A DNA stretch of 44,826 bases from an uncultured Eubacteriales bacterium (GTDB lineage Bacteria > Bacillota > Clostridia > Oscillospirales > Oscillospiraceae). The position numbers and the translations under genes are program-made. Each line of letters starts with the position of its first letter. The stretch's first letter is position 1. Positions 4,398-25,867 of this stretch are shown here, one piece after another. The DNA is taken from NCBI GenBank assembly GCA_949283375.1, contig CASDSM010000012.1, forward strand, positions 1-44,826, read 5' to 3'. A model generated the notes under the pieces. The model did not search any database. It saw nothing but the letters and a program-made list of their open reading frames with translations, and was not told where the DNA came from.

Positions 4398-5804
4398 CTC
4401 ACATTCCTCCTTATAGACATCGTACCGGTATTTTTGAATGACAGCGCAGGCGGTGGAGAGGATCACCTGCCAGACGGAGGACTCCCAGGCCTGGGGGGTG
4501 GAGGCCCGGTGGAAGAGGGCCTTCATCACATCCAGGGGCATATGGGCCCGGTCCACCCGGCAGGAGATCAGCCGCTGCATCAGCTGGCCCATGATCCGGT
4601 CATCGGTTTTCAGCCGGGTCTGGCCCTTGACCGTCATCTGTGTCCCAAAGGCGCAGTTGACGATCTGCCACAGGGGCGGGGAGTAGACCTGCCCCCCTTT
4701 TCCAAACCAGCAGCAGGTGTTGTCCCAGTGGTAGAGCCGCTGGAGATAGTCGGAGCCGTCCAGCTCGTTGTAGTAGGTCAGGGAGAGCCGTCCGGTGGTG
4801 GCGGCGTCAAAGGCGGCCACCACCACGCCGCTTCCCTCCGGCAGTTGGGAGCGATAGCCCTCCAGGGTCTTTTTCAGCTCCGCCCGGTAGCTGCTGGGGC
4901 GGGTGGTGACCGAGTCGGGGCTGCCGAAGGGCCCGGCGGCGTGGCAGACCCGCACGCCCTGCGGATTCCAGCAGAGGAAGGTCCGCCCGCCAAAGACCAC
5001 ACGAGCCCCCTGCTCCGCGGCCACCCAGCGCAGGGCGTTGTGGGCCTTTTGGGAGGCGATGTAGCTGACGGTGGCGGCCTGGCTGTCCTCGGTAAACCGC
5101 CCCCGGAAGGTAAAGCCGCTCTGGTCGTTGGCGGAGATCAGCTTGGCGTTGCCGTTGATGGGAATGATCCCCTTGGGGTGCTGTTTGGCCGGGGCCACAT
5201 GTGCGCCGGTGATCATGCAGAGGGAATCCCCGTCCTCCGGCTGCAGGCTGGCGTACCAGTCCTGGAAGGCCTGGGCCAGGGAGGGCTGCTGCCAGCACCC
5301 GTCCCGCGGCGTGCCGATCCCGTGGACCCGCCAGCAGACCAGGGCCTTTTCCCTGGCGGGCTTTCCGCCTGCATCCAGGGTGAGGATGCCCGCCGCCGCG
5401 AGGTCGGAGAGGATGGTGCCCCCCTTCACGTAGGCGAGAATGGGCGCGAGCATGGGGTGGGAGTGCGGGGACTCCGTCCAGGCGGTAAGTTGGTTGACAT
5501 AAGACGTATGCTTGTTTTTGTCGTAGGGAGCTAAAAAGCTAACGTAGTCACACAATGGATGGGGGAAGGGTTTTATGCCTGTTCGCCCCGCAGAACGTTC
5601 TGTTGCCGGGATAAAGATCTTGTTTTCCGATTTATCCCACAGCCGCGCGGAGGAGAAGGAGCCGTCCCGCTCCAGTGTGATCTCGATCTCCGGCCGGGCG
5701 AGGATGTGGGAGACGGGGACGAGCACCTGGTGCCCCTCGATCTCCCGGCCGACGTAGTCCCGGTGGGCGTCGTAGGTCTCCACCGCCTTTTGAAACAGGC
5801 CCAT
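3969..5804 (-). CDS. cas8c: Cascade large subunit Cas8c (Csd1)
   Basis: This 611-residue Cas8c recognises the PAM and starts target-strand unwinding. The family is recognised by the start MGLFQKAVETYDAH, the middle (FAFG-type SLCMITGAH followed by AKQHPKGI) and the operon position between cas5d and cas7. The ATG at 5804 overlaps the cas5d stop by one base (TGATG) and has GGAGGTGATCT in front; the in-frame extension to 5897 is rejected. The 3' quarter also encodes Cas11c from an internal start (see 3969-4397). Length is within the usual range for Csd1. Confidence 0.95.
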   Translation of the reverse strand: MGLFQKAVETYDAHRDYVGREIEGHQVLVPVSHILARPEIEITLERDGSFSSARLWDKSENKIFIPATERSAGRTGIKPFPHPLCDYVSFLAPYDKNKHTSYVNQLTAWTESPHSHPMLAPILAYVKGGTILSDLAAAGILTLDAGGKPAREKALVCWRVHGIGTPRDGCWQQPSLAQAFQDWYASLQPEDGDSLCMITGAHVAPAKQHPKGIIPINGNAKLISANDQSGFTFRGRFTEDSQAATVSYIASQKAHNALRWVAAEQGARVVFGGRTFLCWNPQGVRVCHAAGPFGSPDSVTTRPSSYRAELKKTLEGYRSQLPEGSGVVVAAFDAATTGRLSLTYYNELDGSDYLQRLYHWDNTCCWFGKGGQVYSPPLWQIVNCAFGTQMTVKGQTRLKTDDRIMGQLMQRLISCRVDRAHMPLDVMKALFHRASTPQAWESSVWQVILSTACAVIQKYRYDVYKEECEMSVNPEHLDRSYQFGRLLAVLEAAERATYARDETREPNAIRLMTMYCRLPMKTAVQIDQQLHQAYFPRLARNNPGLEQWYKNLIGEIFSQIQTLAEEQRGSKSLEQMLNQPLGETYLLGYYLMRKELRSKKNNNEMQDEEEI

Positions 5805-6532
5805 CAGATCACCTCCCCGAACTCTGCCAGACCGGAGAAGTTGCCTGCGCCGAAAGGCTTCATCTCCAGCTCCCGCAGAGGCTTGTGAAGGGGGCACTCC
5901 TCCGGCCGGGGGAAGGTGACGATCCCCCGGCGCATGACGGGATACCAGAAGTTGGCAGTCATCTTGCCCGCCGTCTGGGGAGAATAGGCCTCGTCGGGAT
6001 AGGTGATGCCGTGGTACATCAGGCCGAAGCTCAGCTCCGGAGTGCTGTCGTAGTGGCCCGCCTCGCCGTCAAAGTCGCAGGGCTCCACATAGCCCTGACA
6101 TTCCCGGGTCCCCAGAAAGATATCCCTCCGGCCCCCCTTCTGGATCATCCGCCGGGCGATGTTGTGATGCTTGTGCTCGTTGCGGTCCCCCGCCAGCTCG
6201 GGGCGGTTGTCGTTCCACTCAAAGTGGGCCAGCACCCGGTAGCGCACGTGCTTGAGATAGGTATAGTAGGCCAGGTCGTTGCCGCCGTGGTACTTGACGG
6301 GGCGGATGCCCTTCACCTCGGTCTGGATGGGCTCCATCACCCGCACGGCGTCGATATACCAGATCAGCGTCGGCTTCCAGTAGACCGAGGCCAGAATTCC
6401 CTTCAGCGCCTCATAGGTGGGGATCTGATAGGTGCACTTCTCGCCGCCGACCCGGGTGATCGGATCGGTGAAGAGGGCGTAGTTGCCGCTCACCTGAAAG
6501 GTGACCAGGTTGGGATGGACAGGTTTTGACAT
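5804..6532 (-). CDS. cas5d: Cas5d, crRNA-processing endoribonuclease (type I-C)
   Basis: This 242-residue Cas5d replaces Cas6 in type I-C: it cuts pre-crRNA at the repeat hairpin and stays on the 5' handle. The Cas5 glycine-rich and aromatic features are present (TRVGGEKCTYQIPTYEALKG). A K-H-H motif at 121-123 (NEHKHHNIARR) matches the catalytic Lys-His pair known in this family, and Tyr40 lies near the expected tyrosine. No cas6 is present, which agrees. The gene starts 2 nt after cas3 and overlaps cas8c by one base. It should also process the repeat-like RNA at 8960-9078, which has a similar hairpin and handle. Confidence 0.96.
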   Translation of the reverse strand: MSKPVHPNLVTFQVSGNYALFTDPITRVGGEKCTYQIPTYEALKGILASVYWKPTLIWYIDAVRVMEPIQTEVKGIRPVKYHGGNDLAYYTYLKHVRYRVLAHFEWNDNRPELAGDRNEHKHHNIARRMIQKGGRRDIFLGTRECQGYVEPCDFDGEAGHYDSTPELSFGLMYHGITYPDEAYSPQTAGKMTANFWYPVMRRGIVTFPRPEECPLHKPLRELEMKPFGAGNFSGLAEFGEVI

Positions 6533-6534
6533 GG

Positions 6535-8898
6535 CTACACCTCCAAATAGCTCAATTGGTTGGGTTCTATGACCAGTCCGGTCTCCGGATGGTAAAAGCG
6601 GGGCTGAAGGGCCAGCACGGCGTTGCCCAGCAGGGGGACCAGTCCGCCCTGCTGTTCCAGCTGTCCGAGCTGGAAGGCATAGAGGGAGATGGCATAGGGC
6701 CTTGCCGCCTCCAGAAGAGCCTTTTGCCGGCGGGGATCATGGGAGGCGGCATCGCCGCCCAGCGCCTGGATGAGGGAGGCTCCCTCCCCGTAGGGGACCA
6801 GGACATCGGTGGTCTCCTGCTCAAATACCTCAAACTGCCCTCCGGCCAGGGCAAAGGCCTGTCGCAGGCCGTATCTGGACGGACCGTCGGCGTACCGGGT
6901 GTTCCAGGAGAGCAGGTCAAAGAGAGTTCCGTGCTCTTTGAGGGGATAGTCCCGGGCCTGTCCCTTCATGTTCCGATAGAGATTTTGATAGTACTGTTCA
7001 ATGGCCGGGTCGGAGGAGAGGTCGTTTTCAAATTGCTCCGGACAATGCCGGAAGGCGGAGAGGAGCTGCAGGGTGGCGGTCTTGGCCGCCTGAATTTCCG
7101 GCAGCCTGCCGAGGTTTTCGTCCGAGCAGGTGAGCAGATAGACCGGGGAGGGGGTGGAGGACTCCCCGTTGCGGTTGCAGCGCCCGGCGGACTGCACCGC
7201 GCTGTCCATCCCCGCCGTGAGCCGGACTACCATCCCAAAGGAGAGGTCCACTCCCGCCTCAATGACCTGGGTGGAGACGCAGAGCACCCTGTCCCCGCCG
7301 TTTCGGCTCCGCTCGAGGGCAGCGGTCAGCCGGTCCAGGGTGTCCCTCCGGTGCCGGGGACACATGGAGGCGGAGAGGTGGAAGGAGATCAGACCGGGCA
7401 GGCAGAGCTGCTGGTAGAGAAAAGCGGCCTCGCGCCGGTTGTTGCAGACCACCAGCAGGCTGGAGGTGTCCTCCAGCCTGTCCCGGAGCCAGATGGGGAT
7501 CTCCTCCAGACGAAGCTGTCCGGCGTCGGTGAGCGCGGTCCGGCGGAAGGGGTCCCAGAGTGCCGGGTCGTAGGGGACCAGCCCCTCCAGAGCGCCCCGG
7601 ATGGGATGGTCCACCGCCCCCAGAGAGGGCTGGGTGGCGGAGCAGAGGACAACGGTGGCCCCGCAGACTTCTGACAGGAAGTTGACCGCCAGATTGAACA
7701 GGGTGATCAGCTTGGAGGGGACGGTCTGCACCTCGTCAATGACGATCACGCTGTCACAGAGGGCCTGAAACCGGCGGATGCAGCTGGTCTTGCCGGAAAA
7801 GAGGGTGTTGAGCAGCTGGACCAGGGTGGTGATGATGACGGGGGCGTTCCAGCTCTCCAGCAGTAGTTCCCTGGGGTCCAGCCGCTCCCCCTCCGGCTGG
7901 GGCCGGACGAGGTTGGAATGGTGTTCGAGCACCAGGCGGTCCTCCCCGATGGCATCACGGAGGACGGCAGCGTTCTGCTCCAGAATGCTCAGCAGGGGAA
8001 AGGTGAAGATCAGGCGGCGCTTTCCGTGGGCCGCAGCGTGGGCCAGGGCAAACCGGAGGGCGCTGAGGGTCTTTCCGCCGCCGGTGGGCACGTTCAGCCG
8101 GTAGACTCCGCAGGGGCGTTCCCCGGCGGCCCGGCACTGGCGGGAGATCTCCTGCCGGGCGCGGTCCACAGGGGTGTCCGAGGGGAAGCGGCCCAGCAGC
8201 CTGTCCAACCGGGCCAGCAGGCGATGCCAGAGCGGAACCGGGTCCTCCGGCCAGTCCGGGGGAGAGATGAGGGTCAGAAAGGCCGCCGTGTCGTGCCGGT
8301 CCCCCTCGATCACTGCCGAGAGGAGAAGGCGGGCCAGCAGGCCCAGATGGAAGAAGATCTCCTCCTCTGGCTGGCTGTTCGCCCACTGAAAGACGGGGAG
8401 AAGCTGCCTCAGGGCCTGCTGAAAGCGGGCGTCCAGCTCTTCCTGAGCGGCGCACTGGACCAGGAACTGCTCCACCGACTCCTGATAGAGGGCGTCGTCC
8501 CATTCCATCCGGTGGTCAAAGCCGGAGCGCTTCCGGGCGTCCACGCAGTCAAAGAGCCCATGATGTGCTCCGGCGGCGTAGGCCAGCAGCTCGGCGGCCA
8601 TGTCGGTATAGTCGGTAAACTGTCCTGGGTGGTGATATCGCTCCAGCAGATAGCGGACCGCCCCGTGGGTGTGGATCACCGAGCCCCGCCTTCCGACGCC
8701 GTCCTCGATATAAGCCTTGAATGAGGACGTGAATTTGCCTGAATCATGAAGTAATGCCGCCAGATAGCCTGCCTCGTCCAGTGAGACGGACCGGAGACAT
8801 CGCCCGGCGATGTCGGCGGTGTTCCGGCAGTGCTCCTGGACGGTCTGGACTCGGCAGGAGCCATCCTCCTCCGGACGGAGATGTGCGGGGTAGCGCAC
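6535..8898 (-). CDS. cas3: CRISPR-associated helicase-nuclease Cas3 (type I-C)
   Basis: This 787-residue Cas3 is recruited by target-bound Cascade to nick and degrade DNA. It has an N-terminal HD nuclease (His51-Asp52 in LLHDSGKF; His112-His113 in AHHGLFD) and a superfamily 2 helicase (Walker A PTGGGKT 271-277, DEVQ 388-391, SAT 420-422). I choose the GTG at 8898 because GGGAGG lies 7 nt upstream and the product starts like other I-C Cas3 proteins (YPAHLRPEEDG). The in-frame ATG at 8952 has no ribosome site and would lie inside the CreR promoter. The gene is first in the cas operon, about 200 nt from its promoter. Confidence 0.96.
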   Translation of the reverse strand: MRYPAHLRPEEDGSCRVQTVQEHCRNTADIAGRCLRSVSLDEAGYLAALLHDSGKFTSSFKAYIEDGVGRRGSVIHTHGAVRYLLERYHHPGQFTDYTDMAAELLAYAAGAHHGLFDCVDARKRSGFDHRMEWDDALYQESVEQFLVQCAAQEELDARFQQALRQLLPVFQWANSQPEEEIFFHLGLLARLLLSAVIEGDRHDTAAFLTLISPPDWPEDPVPLWHRLLARLDRLLGRFPSDTPVDRARQEISRQCRAAGERPCGVYRLNVPTGGGKTLSALRFALAHAAAHGKRRLIFTFPLLSILEQNAAVLRDAIGEDRLVLEHHSNLVRPQPEGERLDPRELLLESWNAPVIITTLVQLLNTLFSGKTSCIRRFQALCDSVIVIDEVQTVPSKLITLFNLAVNFLSEVCGATVVLCSATQPSLGAVDHPIRGALEGLVPYDPALWDPFRRTALTDAGQLRLEEIPIWLRDRLEDTSSLLVVCNNRREAAFLYQQLCLPGLISFHLSASMCPRHRRDTLDRLTAALERSRNGGDRVLCVSTQVIEAGVDLSFGMVVRLTAGMDSAVQSAGRCNRNGESSTPSPVYLLTCSDENLGRLPEIQAAKTATLQLLSAFRHCPEQFENDLSSDPAIEQYYQNLYRNMKGQARDYPLKEHGTLFDLLSWNTRYADGPSRYGLRQAFALAGGQFEVFEQETTDVLVPYGEGASLIQALGGDAASHDPRRQKALLEAARPYAISLYAFQLGQLEQQGGLVPLLGNAVLALQPRFYHPETGLVIEPNQLSYLEV

Positions 8899-8924
8899 AG
8901 GCAGACCTCCCTTCCTGGAAACGG

Positions 8925-8953
8925 TTGCGGATGGAGATAAAATTGGGTACAAT
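8925..8953 (+). promoter_or_regulatory. Promoter of the CreR-like RNA
   Basis: A -35 box TTGCGG (8925-8930) and -10 box TACAAT (8948-8953) are separated by exactly 17 bp on the plus strand. The predicted start near 8960 falls just before the repeat-like hairpin. The -10 hexamer is the same as that of the cas promoter. The promoter lies over the cas3 5' region and points away from cas3. Confidence 0.75.
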
Positions 8954-8959
8954 AGAGCT

Positions 8960-9078
8960 GTCAGACAGAGGGGACCTCTGCCTGTGGATTGAAAGGTGGA
9001 AATGGGGTTAAAGGCTCACGGGCCGCATCCCAGAGGGCGCTGCGGACATCCGGTTCGCGGCGCCCTCGCGCCATTTTT
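8960..9078 (+). ncRNA. CreR-like RNA: degenerate CRISPR repeat plus spacer targeting the cas promoter
   Basis: The unit is a promoter (8925-8953), a repeat-like segment (8963-8995), a spacer-like segment (from 8996) and a terminator (9033-9078). The repeat-like segment has a CAGAGG/CCTCTG hairpin and ends GTGGATTGAAAG, which equals the last 12 nt of the array repeat except the final base. The next 17 nt match minus-strand positions 9158-9142 at all positions except 6 and 12. That site has the I-C PAM TTC (9161-9159) and its 34-nt protospacer covers the -35 box of the cas promoter. Degenerate mini-CRISPRs that guide Cascade to repress cas genes (CreR) are known from other subtypes. Repeat, match and PAM are seen directly; the function is inferred. 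Confidence 0.82.
9033..9078 (+). terminator. Terminator-like hairpin of the CreR-like RNA
   Basis: Positions 9033-9047 pair with 9053-9067 over 15 bp, including two G-T wobbles, with a 5-nt loop. A T5 run (9074-9078) begins 6 nt after the stem on the plus strand. On the minus strand no U-run follows, so the cas transcript, which crosses it, should not stop here. It would be a strong structure in the cas 5' untranslated region. Confidence 0.65.
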
Positions 9079-9104
9079 CGGTCCGGTCATTTTACTTGGA
9101 CAAA

Positions 9105-9133
9105 ATTGTAACATGTGGCGCTGCTGTTGTCAA
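9105..9133 (-). promoter_or_regulatory. Promoter of the cas operon
   Basis: On the minus strand a consensus -35 TTGACA (9128-9133) is followed by 17 bp and TACAAT (9105-9110). The predicted start near 9098 leaves about 200 nt of untranslated leader before the cas3 GTG. It is the only strong promoter seen upstream of the tightly packed cas genes. Confidence 0.85.
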
Positions 9134-9161
9134 CAAGGAGTTTTAAACCCATATCCACGAA
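9125..9161 (-). promoter_or_regulatory. Protospacer-like operator over the cas -35 box
   Basis: On the minus strand, PAM TTC (9161-9159) is followed by GTGGATATGGGTTTAAA (9158-9142), which matches the CreR-like spacer. A 34-nt I-C protospacer from 9158 ends at 9125 and so includes the -35 hexamer (9128-9133). Cascade bound here would block RNA polymerase. Pairing stops after position 17, which would disfavour full Cas3-mediated attack on the chromosome. Confidence 0.78.
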
Positions 9162-9283
9162 ATGATAGTATGAATTGGAGAGCGCACCATCCGCCGGTCA
9201 AAGGCTCCATGTCCCGCCCGCAGGTGATGGAACCGGCGGTTCCTGAATAGTCTGTCTGGAGGACTGAGAAGGGGGCGGTGCGC

Positions 9284-10726
9284 ATGCAGGTGCTCGAGCG
9301 GCTCTCGGCGCTGGCCTGGGGCTGGCCGACGGTGGGCCTTTTTCTGCTCACCGGGACGTATTATACCCTACGCAGCGGCTGCTTCCCCCTCTTTGGCCTG
9401 CGGGAGTGGTGGGGCGCAACGGTGGGGCGAGCGGCGCGGCGGACGGAGGGCGGCGGCGGACTGAGCGCGATGCAGACCATCTCCACCGCCCTGGCCGCCA
9501 CGCTGGGCACGGGGTCCATCGCCGGGGTGGCGACGGCGCTCACCTTCGGCGGGCCGGGGGCGGTGTTCTGGATGTGGGTGTCTGCCCTGCTGGGGATGAT
9601 GACCGGCTGGGCGGAGAAAGCCCTCTCCATCTCCCTGCGCCGCCGGACGGCGGACGGCTGGGCGGGCGGGCCGATGCTCTGGCTGGAGCTGGCAGGCCTG
9701 CCTGCCCTGGGGAAGCTCTTTGCCCTCGCGGTGGTCCTATCCTCCTTCGGGATGGGGAATCTCGTGCAGGCCAACTCGATGGCCCAGTCGATGGAGAGCG
9801 CCTTCGGCGTGCCGCCCCTCGTGACCGGGCTGACCGCCGCGGCGGTGACCGGCCTCGCCCTCGCCGGGGGCGTGCGCCGCCTGGGATGGCTCTGCGAGCG
9901 ATTGGTGCCGGTGATGGCGCTTGGCTATCTCGCGGCGGGACTCTGGGTGATCGCCGCCCATCTCCCCGCCCTCCCGGGGGCGCTGGCCGCCATCCTGTCA
10001 GGGGCCCTCGGGCCGGAGGCGGTCTCCGGCGGACTGGGCGCGGCGGCCCTCCAGTACGGCCTCGCGCGCGGGGTGGCGACCAATGAGGCGGGGCTGGGCT
10101 CCACCCCCCTCGTCCACTGCGCCGCCGCCAACACCGACGCGCGCGCGGAGGGGATGTGGGGCATCTTCGAGGTCTTCTGCTCCACCCTCCTGGTCTGCAC
10201 CGTCACCGCCCTCGCTATCCTCACCTCCGGCGCCTGCCGCCTGGGAGAGACCGCCCTGACCGGCGCGCAGCTGACCGCCGCCGCCTTCTCCACTGTGCTC
10301 GGCGATTGGGGCGGGCCCTTTGTCGCCCTCTGCCTGGCGCTCTTTGGCTTTACCACCCTGCTCGGCTGGAGCTGGTACGGCCGCTGCGGCCTCGCCTGGC
10401 TCGCCGGCGGCAGGGGAGAGGGGGCCTACCGCGCCGCCTTTCTCGCCGCCGTCTGCGCCGGGAGCTGCCTCGCCCTCCGGCCGGTCTGGCTGCTCGCCGA
10501 CTGCTTCAACGCCCTGATGGCCTGGCCCAGTCTGACCGCCCTCCTGCTCTGGTCCGGCCGCGCCCTGGAGATCCTCCGCGGCGTGGATAGGACGGGCGCT
10601 GCGGGGCACACTGGGGGAGAGGTGATGTCACATGAGCAAAAAGAGAGGGCAGCACGGCGAGAGAGGGCCGGATATCCCGGACGATCTCCGCCTGAATCCC
10701 GAGCAGCGCCTGTGCGCAAGGTTTGA
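9284..10726 (+). CDS. Sodium:alanine/glycine symporter (AGCS family)
   Basis: This is an integral membrane protein of about 480 residues with roughly ten hydrophobic segments. It imports alanine or glycine with sodium. The AGCS signature is near the N-terminus (GGLSAMQTISTALAATLGTGSIAGVA), followed by GGPGAVFWMWVSALLGMMTGWAEKAL and later VATNEAGLGSTPLVHCAA. The start is the ATG at 9284 or the GTG at 9278; GAAGGGGG in front fits the ATG better. The last 30 residues are basic and run into the small ORF at 10632 in another frame, so the true C-terminus may be under relaxed constraint. No glycine-riboswitch motif was found upstream. Substrate choice is inferred from the family. Confidence 0.92.
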   Translation: MQVLERLSALAWGWPTVGLFLLTGTYYTLRSGCFPLFGLREWWGATVGRAARRTEGGGGLSAMQTISTALAATLGTGSIAGVATALTFGGPGAVFWMWVSALLGMMTGWAEKALSISLRRRTADGWAGGPMLWLELAGLPALGKLFALAVVLSSFGMGNLVQANSMAQSMESAFGVPPLVTGLTAAAVTGLALAGGVRRLGWLCERLVPVMALGYLAAGLWVIAAHLPALPGALAAILSGALGPEAVSGGLGAAALQYGLARGVATNEAGLGSTPLVHCAAANTDARAEGMWGIFEVFCSTLLVCTVTALAILTSGACRLGETALTGAQLTAAAFSTVLGDWGGPFVALCLALFGFTTLLGWSWYGRCGLAWLAGGRGEGAYRAAFLAAVCAGSCLALRPVWLLADCFNALMAWPSLTALLLWSGRALEILRGVDRTGAAGHTGGEVMSHEQKERAARRERAGYPGRSPPESRAAPVRKV

Positions 10727-22243: not shown

Positions 22244-22272
22244 TTGTGCGGAGGGAAGGGCTGTGATAGAAT
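22244..22272 (+). promoter_or_regulatory. Promoter of the secreted esterase gene
   Basis: TTGTGC (22244-22249), 17 bp, TAGAAT (22267-22272). The start would lie about 37 nt before the ATG at 22316. It is divergent from the BMP-like promoter, about 85 bp away. Confidence 0.65.
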
Positions 22273-22315
22273 ATGTCTGCATGAGACACGCAGGAGGCGC
22301 GCAGCCGGAAAGGTC

Positions 22316-25300
22316 ATGAGGTGCAGAAGCAGAATGGGTCAAGGATGCAAATATGTGAGACGGTTCCTGTCGCTGCTGCTGGCGATGGCGATGCTCTGCC
22401 CGCTGGGGCTGGAGGGCCTGGCAGCGGAGCTCCCGGAGGAGGATGCCGCCGTACAGACGGAGATGCAGACGGACATGCCGGACGAGCCCGACGGGGAAGA
22501 GACGGCCTCCGGCGATCCGCAGACCCCCGCGGAGGAGGACACCGTGACCCCGGAGGAGCCAACCGATGACGGCTCCACCGACCCGGAAGAGCCGTCTGGC
22601 GATGATTCCACCGACCCGGAGGAACCTGCCGGTGACAGCCCCGCCGACCCGGAGGAACCTGCCGGCGGCGAAGCGTCGGACGCCGGGGCCGGGGAGACCG
22701 ACCCGGCTCCGGAGACGCCGGAGGAGAGTTCGGACGCACAGGTGCAGGAGCTACAGTGGACGGAGACCTCACTCAGCCTGCAATACGATGACCGCTATTC
22801 CTTTGCCGGGGCATGGCCGGGCTATGAGGTCCTGGAGTTCTCCAGCCAGACGGTGACCTCCTGGCAGGTCTCCCGGGGCAGCGTGAGCAGCGCGCGGGAC
22901 AAGGCGGTGCTCGCGCTCCAGACTAGCAGCCAGACGGACGTGATCGCGACCGGCACCGGCCAGGCCACCGTCATCCTCGCCCCGAAGGGACGTGCGGACG
23001 AGGCGCGGGCGGCGCTGGAGGCGGAGGAGACGCAGCCTGCGGAGACCGCGTCGGAGACGTCCGCGGCCGGGCCGCTCTCCCTGGTGCGCGTAGAGGTGAC
23101 GGTCACCGCCGCCCCGCTGACCGTGATGCTGCTGCTGGGCCAGAGCAATATGGAGGGCTACCGGTCAGATCTCACCGGCTCCCACCCGGAGGACTCCATC
23201 CTCTGCCCGGACGGCGAGGTCTACTGTGACGCAGTCCTGAGCTCGGCGGTGAACCGGTATGTCTCCGGCGGCCTGACGGGCAACCGCAGCCTGAACGGGA
23301 GGGAGATCACGACCGACCGGCTCACCTCCGCAGGTTCCGGCAAGACCGGTGCGGACAGCGCCCTGGCCTATGAGTGGAACCGCCTGACCGGGGACAAGGT
23401 ATGGGTGGTGAACGCCGCCATCGGCGGCTCCTCCATCGCGACCTGGGCGTCCGGCGGGAGCTCCTATGAGAGGATGCAGGACACGGCGGCCGCCCTGCTG
23501 CAGACCCTGACGGCGGAGGTGCAGGCTGGGCACTATACCGAGAGCCACCGGCTCACCTTCTGGCTCCAGGGCGAGCGGGACTGGGTGCGTACCGCCACGG
23601 AATATCTCGCGGATTTCCGCAGTTTCTATGACGGTCTGGACGACATCTTTGGCATGGAGCGTTTTGGGATCATCATGCCGCGTGCCAGCGTGGACACGAA
23701 CTGCGGCGAGGATGACATCCGCATGACGGGCCCGCGCATCGCGCAGTATTACATCGGCATGAGCACGCAGTACCCCAACGTCTATGTCGTGAGCAATATC
23801 AATGAGCAGTGGGTCACGGACGGCGGCGTGCGCAGCTATTTCCGCTCGGCCTACCCGGGCGGCAGACTGACCTATCCGCTGCGCAGCGGGAGCAATCTGT
23901 CCGGTCTGCCGGCCACCGTTGCGGAGGTCCATCCCGACCTCCACTATGCCCAGGTGGGACACAACGAGAACGGGCTGGACGCCGCCCGTTCGATGTATGC
24001 CCTGGTGTACGGGGAGGGGTCTGCCCGCGTCTCCGTCTCCTGGCGGAACATGGACGGCAGACAGGTCAGCTCACTTCAGTTCCATCAGAAGGGAAGCGTG
24101 GTCGTCGTGCCATCGGTCACGCCGGTCTACCGCTCCAAGGGGCTGAGCATCTCCACGACGAACGTGAGCTATCAGGCGTCGACCGGCGTGCTCCGGCGCA
24201 CCTCCTCACAGAGCGGGACGCTCCGGGCCGCCGCGGGGAGCACCTCCGCGCCGTTGAAGGTCACCGGCGTGAGCACGAGCACTCCGGCCCTGCTCAGCGC
24301 ACAGAATGCCGTCGGCGGCGTCTCGCTCCGCTGGTCGGAGGTGGCCGGGGCGACCGTCTACCGCGTCTACCGGAAATACAACCTCCGGAGCTGGGAGGCC
24401 ATCGCGGATGTGAAGGGGACGTCCTACCTGGACACGGATGCGTGGTCGAGCACGACCTACACCTATACGGTGCGCGCCTTTGTCGGCTCGGCCCTGTCTC
24501 CCTATGATGCGTCGGGGATCAGCGTCCACTACCTCTCCACCCCGGCCCTCCTGATCAGCAATGTAGACGGCGGGATCCAGGTCAAGTGGAACGAGAGCTG
24601 CGGGGCGGAGCAGTACATCGTCTACCGCCGCATGGGCAGCAGCTGGGAGCGGATCGCGGCGGTGGACTCCGGCTCGCAGGTCACCTACGTCGATCAGACG
24701 GTCAGGGCGGGCCAGCAGGTCACCTACACGGTGCGCGCCGCCTGCGGCAATGTGCTCTCGAGCTTCCGCCAGGCCGGCGTCACGACGACCTATCTCCCGA
24801 TGCCAGGGCTCACCGGTGCGAGCAATGTGTCCACAGGCGTGCGCGTGACCTGGAGCAGGTCCTCCGGGGCGGCGGGCTACTATGTCTACCGCAAAAGCAC
24901 CGGGAACTGGCAGCGCGTGGCGGTGATCAGGAACAGCGCGACGACCTCTTATACGGACACCACGGCGGTCTCCGGGACGGACTACCGGTATACCGTCCGC
25001 GCCGTCAGCGGCAGCGTCCTCTCCGGTTACAGCAGCAGCGGCATTGCCATCCGTTATCTGCAGACCCCCACGCTGACCCAGCTTGAGACGGTGGAGAGCG
25101 GCGGCAGCGCCACCGGCCTGCGCATCTACTGGCGCGCGGTGAGCGGCGCGAGCAATTACCGGGTTTACCGCCGTCTCCCCGGCGGGAGCTGGACGCGGGT
25201 CGGCCAGACGAGCGGGACGAATTACACCGACACCACGGCGCGCTCCGGCCAGGCTTACAGCTACACCGTGCGGGCGCAGAGCGCGAGCGGCATGTCCTTC

Positions 25301-25867
25301 TACGACACAGCCGGACTGACGGCGACCTGGCTCACCATGCCCGTGGTCCAGAAGGCGGCGAACGTCTCCGGCGGCGTGCGCGTGACCTGGTCGGCGAGCA
25401 GCGGTAGCCTGTCCGGCTATTGGATATACCGCAAAGAGGCGGGAAAAGGCTGGCAGAAGGTCGGCACAGTGAGCAGCAGTCAGACCAGCTACACTGATAC
25501 CGGCGTGACCTCCGGCAAGACGTATTACTACACCGTGCGCGCCTATCGGGGTGCCTCAGTCTCGAGCTATGACCACACGGGGAGGCAGGTGGTCTGTCTC
25601 GCTGTGCCCGCGCTCAGAAGCGCGGCGAAGTCCGGCAGAAGTATCTGCGTCACCTGGGACGTGGTGAGCGGCGCGACGAGCTACACCCTCTACCGGCGCA
25701 CCGGTTCCGGCAGCTGGGTCGCCATTGCCACGCTCACCGGCAACGGCACAACGAGCTGTATCGACGCCAATGTGACCTCCGGCCACACCTATACCTATAC
25801 GGTGCGCGCCCGGTGCAGCGGAGGCTTGTCAGATTACTCGCGCACCGGCGTGCGTGTGAGAGCATAA
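22316..25867 (+). CDS. Secreted SGNH/sialate-O-acetylesterase-like protein with six FnIII-like repeats
   Basis: This protein of about 1183 residues has a signal peptide (YVRRFLSLLLAMAMLCPLGLEGLAAE). An acidic Pro/Asp/Glu-rich stretch repeats TDPEEPxGD. The SGNH-hydrolase domain has GQSNMEG at about 275-281 (nucleophile Ser), GGSSIATW at about 370 and WLQGERD at about 418, with the His region DLHYAQVGHNENG at about 540. Then come six repeats of about 87 residues (24287-25867), each with W..V.GA..Y.VYR...G.W and ending YTVRA, fibronectin type III-like. It is probably a surface enzyme removing acetyl groups from host or plant glycans. There is no LPXTG or transmembrane anchor, so it may be released or held by its repeats. 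The substrate is inferred. Confidence 0.88.
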   Translation: MRCRSRMGQGCKYVRRFLSLLLAMAMLCPLGLEGLAAELPEEDAAVQTEMQTDMPDEPDGEETASGDPQTPAEEDTVTPEEPTDDGSTDPEEPSGDDSTDPEEPAGDSPADPEEPAGGEASDAGAGETDPAPETPEESSDAQVQELQWTETSLSLQYDDRYSFAGAWPGYEVLEFSSQTVTSWQVSRGSVSSARDKAVLALQTSSQTDVIATGTGQATVILAPKGRADEARAALEAEETQPAETASETSAAGPLSLVRVEVTVTAAPLTVMLLLGQSNMEGYRSDLTGSHPEDSILCPDGEVYCDAVLSSAVNRYVSGGLTGNRSLNGREITTDRLTSAGSGKTGADSALAYEWNRLTGDKVWVVNAAIGGSSIATWASGGSSYERMQDTAAALLQTLTAEVQAGHYTESHRLTFWLQGERDWVRTATEYLADFRSFYDGLDDIFGMERFGIIMPRASVDTNCGEDDIRMTGPRIAQYYIGMSTQYPNVYVVSNINEQWVTDGGVRSYFRSAYPGGRLTYPLRSGSNLSGLPATVAEVHPDLHYAQVGHNENGLDAARSMYALVYGEGSARVSVSWRNMDGRQVSSLQFHQKGSVVVVPSVTPVYRSKGLSISTTNVSYQASTGVLRRTSSQSGTLRAAAGSTSAPLKVTGVSTSTPALLSAQNAVGGVSLRWSEVAGATVYRVYRKYNLRSWEAIADVKGTSYLDTDAWSSTTYTYTVRAFVGSALSPYDASGISVHYLSTPALLISNVDGGIQVKWNESCGAEQYIVYRRMGSSWERIAAVDSGSQVTYVDQTVRAGQQVTYTVRAACGNVLSSFRQAGVTTTYLPMPGLTGASNVSTGVRVTWSRSSGAAGYYVYRKSTGNWQRVAVIRNSATTSYTDTTAVSGTDYRYTVRAVSGSVLSGYSSSGIAIRYLQTPTLTQLETVESGGSATGLRIYWRAVSGASNYRVYRRLPGGSWTRVGQTSGTNYTDTTARSGQAYSYTVRAQSASGMSFYDTAGLTATWLTMPVVQKAANVSGGVRVTWSASSGSLSGYWIYRKEAGKGWQKVGTVSSSQTSYTDTGVTSGKTYYYTVRAYRGASVSSYDHTGRQVVCLAVPALRSAAKSGRSICVTWDVVSGATSYTLYRRTGSGSWVAIATLTGNGTTSCIDANVTSGHTYTYTVRARCSGGLSDYSRTGVRVRA
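24287..25867 (+). repeat. Six tandem FnIII-like protein repeats
   Basis: Within the secreted esterase, six units of roughly 260 bp encode similar beta-sandwich domains. Shared features are a Trp near the start of the second strand, VYR, a T-x-Y-x-D-T turn and Y-T-V-R-A. The units are diverged, not recent duplicates. Confidence 0.8.

What the first reader, a model, noticed from the sequence alone, without database searches (positions are those of the whole stretch)
8925..9161. A crRNA-like autorepressor (CreR type) aimed at the promoter of a type I-C cas operon
Seen directly: a plus-strand promoter (TTGCGG-N17-TACAAT), a hairpin with the repeat's 3' handle (11 of 12 bases, 8984-8995), and a spacer-like segment from 8996. 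Its first 17 bases match 9158-9142 (minus) except at positions 6 and 12. The matched site has the I-C PAM TTC at 9161-9159, and the implied protospacer covers the cas -35 box. Known: in type I complexes every sixth crRNA base is flipped out, so mismatches at 6 and 12 (and 18) cost little. CreR-type degenerate mini-CRISPRs are described in some other subtypes. Inference: Cascade with this RNA represses its own operon. If crRNAs run short or an anti-CRISPR disables Cascade, cas genes switch on. The short match would avoid Cas3 self-cutting.
Basis: partly seen in the sequence, partly recalled or inferred. Interest (0 to 1): 0.96.

Follow-up and report, generated by a model that had tools for sequence, protein, structure and literature searches.

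The report
Guide RNA silencing its own CRISPR genes
A bacterium appears to use a small CRISPR-like guide RNA to turn down its own CRISPR defence genes, and related bacteria carry the same kind of switch spelled with different letters, which suggests that it is a real regulator kept by selection.

Summary
A short plus-strand RNA gene (about 8925-9080) lies between the type I-C cas genes and their promoter: promoter, hairpin, 5' handle TGGATTGAAAG, 17-nt guide, strong 3' hairpin with T-run. The guide matches a TTC-flanked site (9158-9142, minus) beside a near-consensus cas promoter at 15 of 15 positions, mismatching only at 6 and 12; this is the only perfect target in the 2.4 Mb genome. In 166 deduplicated I-C upstream regions (window included) I count 22 such RNAs, 23 with a CTT-PAM case, all with different guides, each matching its own cas upstream region. 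When pairs are chosen on two blocks and counted on the third, positions 1-5, 7-11 and 13-17 match in 70-100% of cases and 6, 12 and 18 in 17-18%, the imprint expected from base-flipping in Cascade. PAM-blind matches follow TTC or TTT in 18 of 20. 2,483 array spacers stay at 12/15 or below. Best reading: a CreR-type autorepressor in subtype I-C. CreR is known; the reviews I read name I-B, I-E and V-A. Repression is not shown, and the element is patchy: the nearest Cas5c relative lacks it.

The parts
8925..8953 (+). creR promoter: TTGCGG (8925-8930), 17 nt, TACAAT (8948-8953)
   Evidence: sequence; 8 of 12 to consensus, -10 ends 31 nt before the handle; not reported by the generic scan
8962..8984 (+). 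5' hairpin of CreR (diverged repeat stem), CAG-a-CAGAGG-gga-CCTCTG-c-CTG
   Evidence: folds
8985..8995 (+). crRNA 5' handle TGGATTGAAAG (10 of 11 to the array repeat)
8996..9012 (+). guide: 17 nt, three 5-nt matched blocks (1-5, 7-11, 13-17), free positions 6 and 12
9013..9032 (+). rest of the spacer-like segment, no further match to the target
   Evidence: across loci positions 19-36 match in 3 to 11 of 23
9033..9078 (+). 3' hairpin (9033-9067) and T5 (9074-9078): probable intrinsic terminator where a second repeat would stand
   Evidence: enrichment of 3' hairpins in 22 CreRs
9142..9158 (-). target of the guide (protospacer positions 1-17)
9159..9161 (-). PAM TTC
9105..9133 (-). cas operon promoter TTGACA-17-TACAAT
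   Evidence: 11 of 12
6535..8898 (-). cas3 (GTG start taken at 8898; longest frame reaches 8952), first gene of the operon
   Evidence: cas3 HD and helicase models; start from sequence
5804..6532 (-). cas5c (longest frame), the expected pre-crRNA nuclease
   Evidence: TIGR01876, 237.5 bits
3969..5897 (-). cas8c (longest frame)
   Evidence: TIGR01863
3119..3997 (-). cas7c
   Evidence: TIGR02589
2452..3114 (-). cas4
   Evidence: TIGR00372
1424..2815 (-). cas1 (longest frame; the match covers residues 124-462)
   Evidence: TIGR03640
1124..1414 (-). cas2
   Evidence: TIGR01573
103..902 (-). CRISPR array with 12 repeat copies; read on the minus strand the repeat ends GTGGATTGAAAT

Best explanation
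8925-9080 encodes a crRNA-like small RNA of the CreR type. Shown here: the anatomy, the match, its uniqueness in the genome, and coevolution of guide and cas upstream site in other type I-C loci with free positions at 6, 12 and 18. Inferred: Cas5c cuts at the base of the hairpin (5' end 8985); the RNA joins Cas5c, Cas7 and Cas8c as Cascade; Cascade pairs with the TTC-flanked site through three 5-nt blocks and lies over the cas -35, blocking RNA polymerase; pairing that stops at 17 nt is too short to let Cas3 cut the chromosome. The operon so represses itself while Cascade is free to carry this RNA, and is released when array crRNAs or an anti-CRISPR take Cascade away.
For: Observation checks. 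Search blind to the handle, 77 regions: 12 non-array TTC-flanked 15/15 pairs, 7 with a perfect handle; 616 mispaired regions gave 3 pairs, 0 with a handle of 8/10 or better. The same on 166 regions with stricter filters: 16 pairs in loci with at most 6 hits, 7 with a perfect handle; 830 mispaired regions gave 1 pair, 0 with a handle. Of 18 perfect non-array handles in the 166 regions 14 have a target at 12/15 or better; mispaired control 23 of 5080. Leave-one-block-out: positions 1-5 in 18 of 18 each, 6 in 3 of 18; 7-11 in 21, 21, 18, 20, 20 of 22, 12 in 4 of 22; 13-17 in 21, 21, 20, 21, 16 of 23, 18 in 4 of 23. PAM-blind: 20 hits at 14/15 or better from 44 guides (19 loci), 13 after TTC and 5 after TTT; control 0 of 880. 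2,483 array spacers and 92 lone sites outside the upstream regions reach at most 12 and 11 of 15 against their own upstream region. The 22 guides are all different, the closest two sharing 11 of 15 fixed positions. Homologous upstream regions L008 and L010 (68% identical) differ at 8 of 15 fixed guide positions, yet each matches its own target 15/15. In 8 of 22 the best-scoring -35 lies 17-25 nt after the first target base, as in the window.
Against: No expression or binding data. The nearest Cas5c relatives L001 (91%) and L002 (84%) show no pair at 12/15 or better. Carriers on a Cas5c tree of 156 rows need 20 changes, shuffled labels 20.8 on average (60 shuffles). None of 9 named plasmid I-C loci (9 taken of 27 records found) and not the second I-C-like locus of this genome has one. 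The creR promoter is weak (8 of 12). In 10 of 22 loci the automatic scan places no cas promoter in either regular position. Of 16 handle-blind pairs on 166 regions 9 lack a handle.
Confidence: 0.9

Rival explanations
1. A relic: a lone repeat with a self-targeting spacer once acquired from the cas upstream region, now decaying.
For: One diverged repeat and a self-match are what a relic would show; no second repeat follows.
Against: An acquired spacer matches over its full length; here and in about 22 loci the match ends at 17 and fails at 6 and 12 while 15 positions are kept. Decay would not keep guide and target in step while both change.
Confidence: 0.03
2. A CreA-like guide: the targeted promoter also makes a small toxic RNA or peptide in the cas leader (CreTA), so that loss of Cascade harms the cell.
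For: CreTA modules use the same kind of RNA (PMC9458426, abstract start and passages; PMC12737573, passages). The leader of about 200 nt could hold a short product: a 37-codon frame lies at 9074-8961 on the cas strand.
Against: The targeted promoter points at cas3 and nothing larger lies between; that 37-codon frame is the reverse strand of creR and was not tested for coding.
Confidence: 0.05
3. A shared operator for a protein regulator in two places, with the handle beside one copy by chance.
For: Short repeats between genes are often operators.
Against: Handle-blind pairs carry a perfect handle in 7 of 12 cases and 0 of 3 mispaired ones; letters differ from locus to locus; TTC or TTT precede the target copy; the six-base period is that of Cascade.
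Confidence: 0.01
4. The main effect is antisense: the RNA overlaps the cas leader over its whole length and acts by pairing with it or by colliding transcription; the guide match is secondary.
For: In the window and in L003, L004, L009 and L041 the RNA lies antisense inside the leader.
Against: In 13 of 22 loci the RNA is divergent with its target between it and cas3, and in 4 it is on the cas strand; the match is kept in these too.
Confidence: 0.06

Closest known systems
CreR (cas-regulating RNA), Liu et al. 2023 Cell Host Microbe; paper not held, seen as a reference and through reviews PMC13131331 (one passage), PMC12737573 (passages and section 9), PMC12948488 (one passage)
   Same: crRNA-like RNA of the cas locus, partial complementarity to the cas promoter, no toxin, predicted autorepression
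   Different: PMC13131331 names I-B, I-E and V-A; this is I-C, where Cas5c rather than Cas6 makes crRNAs, and it has one repeat closed by a terminator-like hairpin. Whether the original paper lists I-C I could not read.
crRNA-like elements of Shmakov et al. 2023 (NAR gkad495); not held, seen only as a reference in PMC10651486; content recalled
   Same: standalone repeats with spacers aimed at cas promoters in type I systems (recalled)
   Different: recalled as often two-repeat mini-arrays; coverage of I-C unknown to me
CreA of CreTA (I-B, PMC9458426: abstract start, passages; I-F, PMC10097628: abstract start)
   Same: ectopic-repeat RNA that directs Cascade to a promoter; in I-B without recruiting Cas3
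   Different: the target is a toxin gene
RacrIC1 (PMC10651486, passages)
   Same: solitary type I-C repeat made into RNA
   Different: prophage-borne inhibitor of immunity; no promoter target described in the passages
natural single-guide RNA of Cas9 (type II-A; Workman 2021 seen only as a reference, content recalled)
   Same: guide RNA makes the effector repress its own operon
   Different: Cas9, unrelated RNA

Membership tests
CreR | crRNA-like RNA gene outside the array with a (diverged) repeat of the cognate system | tested here: met
   (sequence only; RNA not shown)
CreR | PAM-flanked partial complementarity to the cognate cas promoter region | tested here: met
CreR | complementarity kept by selection | tested here: met
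CreR | no toxin gene coupled | tested here: inconclusive
   no frame of 80 aa or more between target and cas3 on the cas strand; short frames of 37, 32 and 23 aa exist there and a toxic RNA cannot be excluded
CreR | represses cas transcription through the effector | not testable with these tools
   needs a reporter
CreR | relief by competing crRNA or anti-CRISPR | not testable with these tools
   needs experiment
CreTA (CreA) | target promoter drives a toxin | tested here: inconclusive
   target promoter faces cas3; no toxin recognised, short leader frames not tested
two-repeat mini-CRISPR | second repeat after the spacer | tested here: not met
   a hairpin and T-run stand there, and the handle 10-mer does not recur there; the abstract of PMC9458426 says CreA has one or, in most cases, two repeats

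The most novel reading that the evidence does not exclude
In the window, its three nearest carriers by Cas5c (L003, L041, L004) and L009, the RNA gene sits inside and antisense to the cas leader. Each cas transcript would then carry a full-length antisense copy of the repressor RNA, and cas transcription would run against creR transcription. Once released, cas transcription would remove its own repressor, turning plain autorepression into a toggle with two states; the CreR descriptions that I could read do not mention such a layout. The 3' hairpin would end the guide in place of a second repeat (the solved I-C complex has a crRNA without a 3' stem-loop, PMC7684278, passage, so the hairpin may be trimmed or be a terminator only).
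Probability: 0.2. Interest if true: 0.8.

Novelty: new member of a known kind. Interest (0 to 1): 0.62.

Why it matters
[quoted passage not shown] About 22 natural guide-target pairs show which contacts matter for this use of Cascade: three 5-nt blocks, free sixth positions, a stop at 17. That gives a rule for finding such RNAs in other genomes and for designing Cascade repressors that bind without cutting.

Tried and rejected
Array spacers as self-targets: one search scored 2,577 handle sites, one of them the window's own RNA counted by mistake (the window was read in the wrong orientation there); the recount gives 2,483 array and 92 lone sites, at most 12 and 11 of 15. Arrays were in hand for 123 of 166 loci. 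Phage-borne copies: 74 viral stretches hold the 15 fixed bases; none has TTC before it or a handle match of 7 of 10 or more; the number expected by chance was not computed. Rfam: no match in 8850-9300 up to E = 1. Other phyla: 0 of 9 plasmid loci, with the handle TGGATTGAAA at up to 2 mismatches, so other handles would be missed; two of the 9 (L243, L244) have no annotated cas3 and were scanned upstream of cas5c.

Sampling: one search kept the best 80 of 298 relatives. Of the matches I fetched 57 and 43 stretches, chosen by score and contig room, not all. Rows dropped: 2 loci without a cas3 match, 5 with under 150 nt upstream, 8 duplicates (181 to 166). The tree has 156 rows of these. For the set of 22 I took handles with at most 1 mismatch and a score of at least 12/15, removed L048 (tandem repeat) and left out L043 and L061 (2 mismatches in the handle), which are among the 24 sites at 13/15 or better. 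L048 and L163 are still in parts of the counts. L067 fails the TT[CT] rule and appears only. In one search the loci L075, L160, L165 and L171, with 72 to 215 hits each, were left out as repeat arrays. L157 (target about 480 nt away, TTT) is the least certain of the 22.

Weak lines: creR promoters, 9 of 22 at 9 of 12 or better against 35 of 440 random upstream segments. 5' hairpins, mean z -1.3, 12 of 22 below -1. 3' hairpins, 15 of 22 at -14 kcal/mol or better against 8 of 66 random upstream segments, some of which may overlap a CreR; with a looser rule 21 of 22.

Papers: nine searches listed no title or abstract start that describes a I-C CreR; most lists were capped and the library lacks most subscription papers.

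Full report
What is there. The window holds a type I-C operon on the minus strand, cas3-cas5c-cas8c-cas7c-cas4-cas1-cas2, followed by an array with 12 repeat copies at 103-902. Between cas3 (GTG taken at 8898) and an amino-acid carrier gene at 9278 the minus strand has a near-consensus promoter TTGACA-17-TACAAT at 9133-9105. The plus strand has a small RNA gene: TTGCGG-17-TACAAT (8925-8953), a hairpin (8962-8984), the handle TGGATTGAAAG (8985-8995), a spacer-like segment from 8996, and a strong hairpin with a T-run (9033-9078). The array repeat ends TGGATTGAAAT.

Chance. The first 17 guide bases match 9158-9142 (minus), flanked by TTC, at all positions except 6 and 12. In the 2.4 Mb genome TTC plus the 15 fixed bases occurs once without mismatch, and the handle 10-mer occurs once outside the array apart from this site. 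Guides tested against upstream regions of other loci never reached 14/15 (0 of 5080; 0 of 880 without a PAM rule).

Relatives. After drops this gave 166 deduplicated upstream regions, the window among them. A search blind to the handle on 77 regions found 12 non-array pairs in which a TTC-flanked 17-mer recurs at 15/15; 7 of the 12 recurring copies follow a perfect handle. Mispaired regions (616) gave 3 pairs, none with a handle. On all 166 regions, with filters for low complexity and local palindromes and without four array-bearing loci, there were 16 pairs, 7 with a perfect handle and 9 without; 830 mispaired regions gave 1 pair, without a handle. In a search from the handle, 254 handle-like non-array sites were scored: 24 have a target at 13/15 or better, where the control gives 4 of 5080; of 18 perfect handles 14 reach 12/15 or better. 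A set of 22 (selection told under Tried and rejected) was carried on. Their guides are all different; the closest two share 11 of 15 fixed positions.

The six-base period. To avoid choosing what I then count, pairs were selected on two of the three blocks and counted on the third (44 guides from 41 loci). Positions 1-5: 18 of 18 each; position 6: 3 of 18. Positions 7-11: 21, 21, 18, 20, 20 of 22; position 12: 4 of 22. Positions 13-17: 21, 21, 20, 21, 16 of 23; position 18: 4 of 23; positions 19-36: 3 to 11 of 23. Mispaired trials pass each selection in 11, 8 and 8 of 880, so less than one false pair is expected among 44 guides. Free positions at 6, 12 and 18 are what base-flipping in Cascade predicts (recalled knowledge of type I complexes; the I-C structure paper PMC7684278, passages, gives seven Cas7 subunits along the crRNA).

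PAM. With no PAM rule there were 20 hits at 14/15 or better (19 loci), preceded by TTC 13 times, TTT 5, TCT 1 and CTT 1; background frequencies of TTC and TTT are 2.0% and 3.5%. TTC and TTT are the PAMs used for the N. lactamica I-C system in PMC10865793 (passage).

Compensatory change. L008 and L010 are homologous upstream regions (68% identical over 339 aligned columns). Their guides differ at 8 of 15 fixed positions, and each matches its own target 15/15. L036 and L222 differ at 5 of 15, with matches of 15 and 14; L067, aligned with them, matches 15/15 after a CTT.

Controls. 2,483 array spacers and 92 lone handle sites outside the upstream regions reach at most 12 and 11 of 15 against their own upstream region, so no such RNA was seen elsewhere in the stretches held. 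Nine named plasmid I-C loci and the second I-C-like locus of this genome have none.

Placement. In 8 of 22 loci, the window among them, the best-scoring -35 lies 17-25 nt after the first target base, so a 34-35 nt protospacer covers it. In 4 others (L008, L045, L214, L215) the first target base lies 65-74 nt after the start of the -35 on the other strand, so the protospacer runs back toward the start site. The other 10 fit neither position by this scan. In the window, L003, L004, L009 and L041 the RNA lies antisense inside the leader; in 13 it is divergent with the target between it and cas3; in 4 it is on the cas strand.

Anatomy across loci. A 3' hairpin of -14 kcal/mol or better follows 15 of 22 guides, against 8 of 66 random upstream segments. 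In several (for example L036, L040, L222) no clear T-run follows it. Promoter and 5' hairpin evidence is weaker.

Against. The nearest relatives by Cas5c, L001 and L002, have no pair at 12/15 or better. Carriers are scattered on the Cas5c tree like shuffled labels (20 changes against a mean of 20.8 in 60 shuffles, 156 rows). So the element is gained and lost often, or my search misses diverged ones. Short frames of 37, 32 and 23 codons lie on the cas strand between the target region and cas3, so a small leader product cannot be excluded. Nothing here shows transcription, processing or repression.

Reading. The data fit a CreR: a crRNA-like RNA that makes Cascade repress its own cas promoter. 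PMC13131331 (passage) says that CreRs mediate autorepression in I-B, I-E and V-A through partial promoter complementarity. PMC12737573 (section 9) says type I and V-A, and describes competition by crRNAs and relief by anti-CRISPRs. The original papers are not held. Nine paper searches listed no I-C case by title or abstract start, which is weak evidence. I therefore call it a new member of a known kind, with the nested antisense layout and the single repeat closed by a hairpin as possible novelties.

Noticed in passing
L196 (own genome G000:C28:8253-8897): The same genome carries a second, diverged I-C-like cas5 locus with no array-like handle sites in the 13.6 kb fetched and no CreR found.
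   Followed up: partly
L153, -169 (RNA) and -208 (target) relative to cas3: The target lies close upstream of the RNA itself on the opposite strand, so it may repress its own promoter as well as, or instead of, another cas promoter.
   Followed up: no
L157, RNA at -257, target at -736 relative to cas3: RNA with two hairpins, the 3' one resembling the array repeat stem; its best target is about 480 nt upstream with a TTT PAM and could control another gene.
   Followed up: no
L053, target near -87 relative to cas3: The guide has two 14/15 sites in the upstream region, one after TTT and one after TCT.
   Followed up: no
L009, L057, L060: RNAs whose handle reads TGGATTTAAA have TTT rather than TTC before the target; three cases only.
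   Followed up: no
L005, upstream of cas3, about -60: A handle-like site GGGATTGAAAA followed by a short tandem duplication and no TTC/TTT-flanked target at 12/15 or better: possibly a decayed CreR.
   Followed up: no
window 22244-25867 (+): A 1207-aa frame with 33-nt tandem repeats (22549-22647) and five copies of a 60-nt repeat, the last four spaced 267-273 nt apart; domain type not checked.
   Followed up: no
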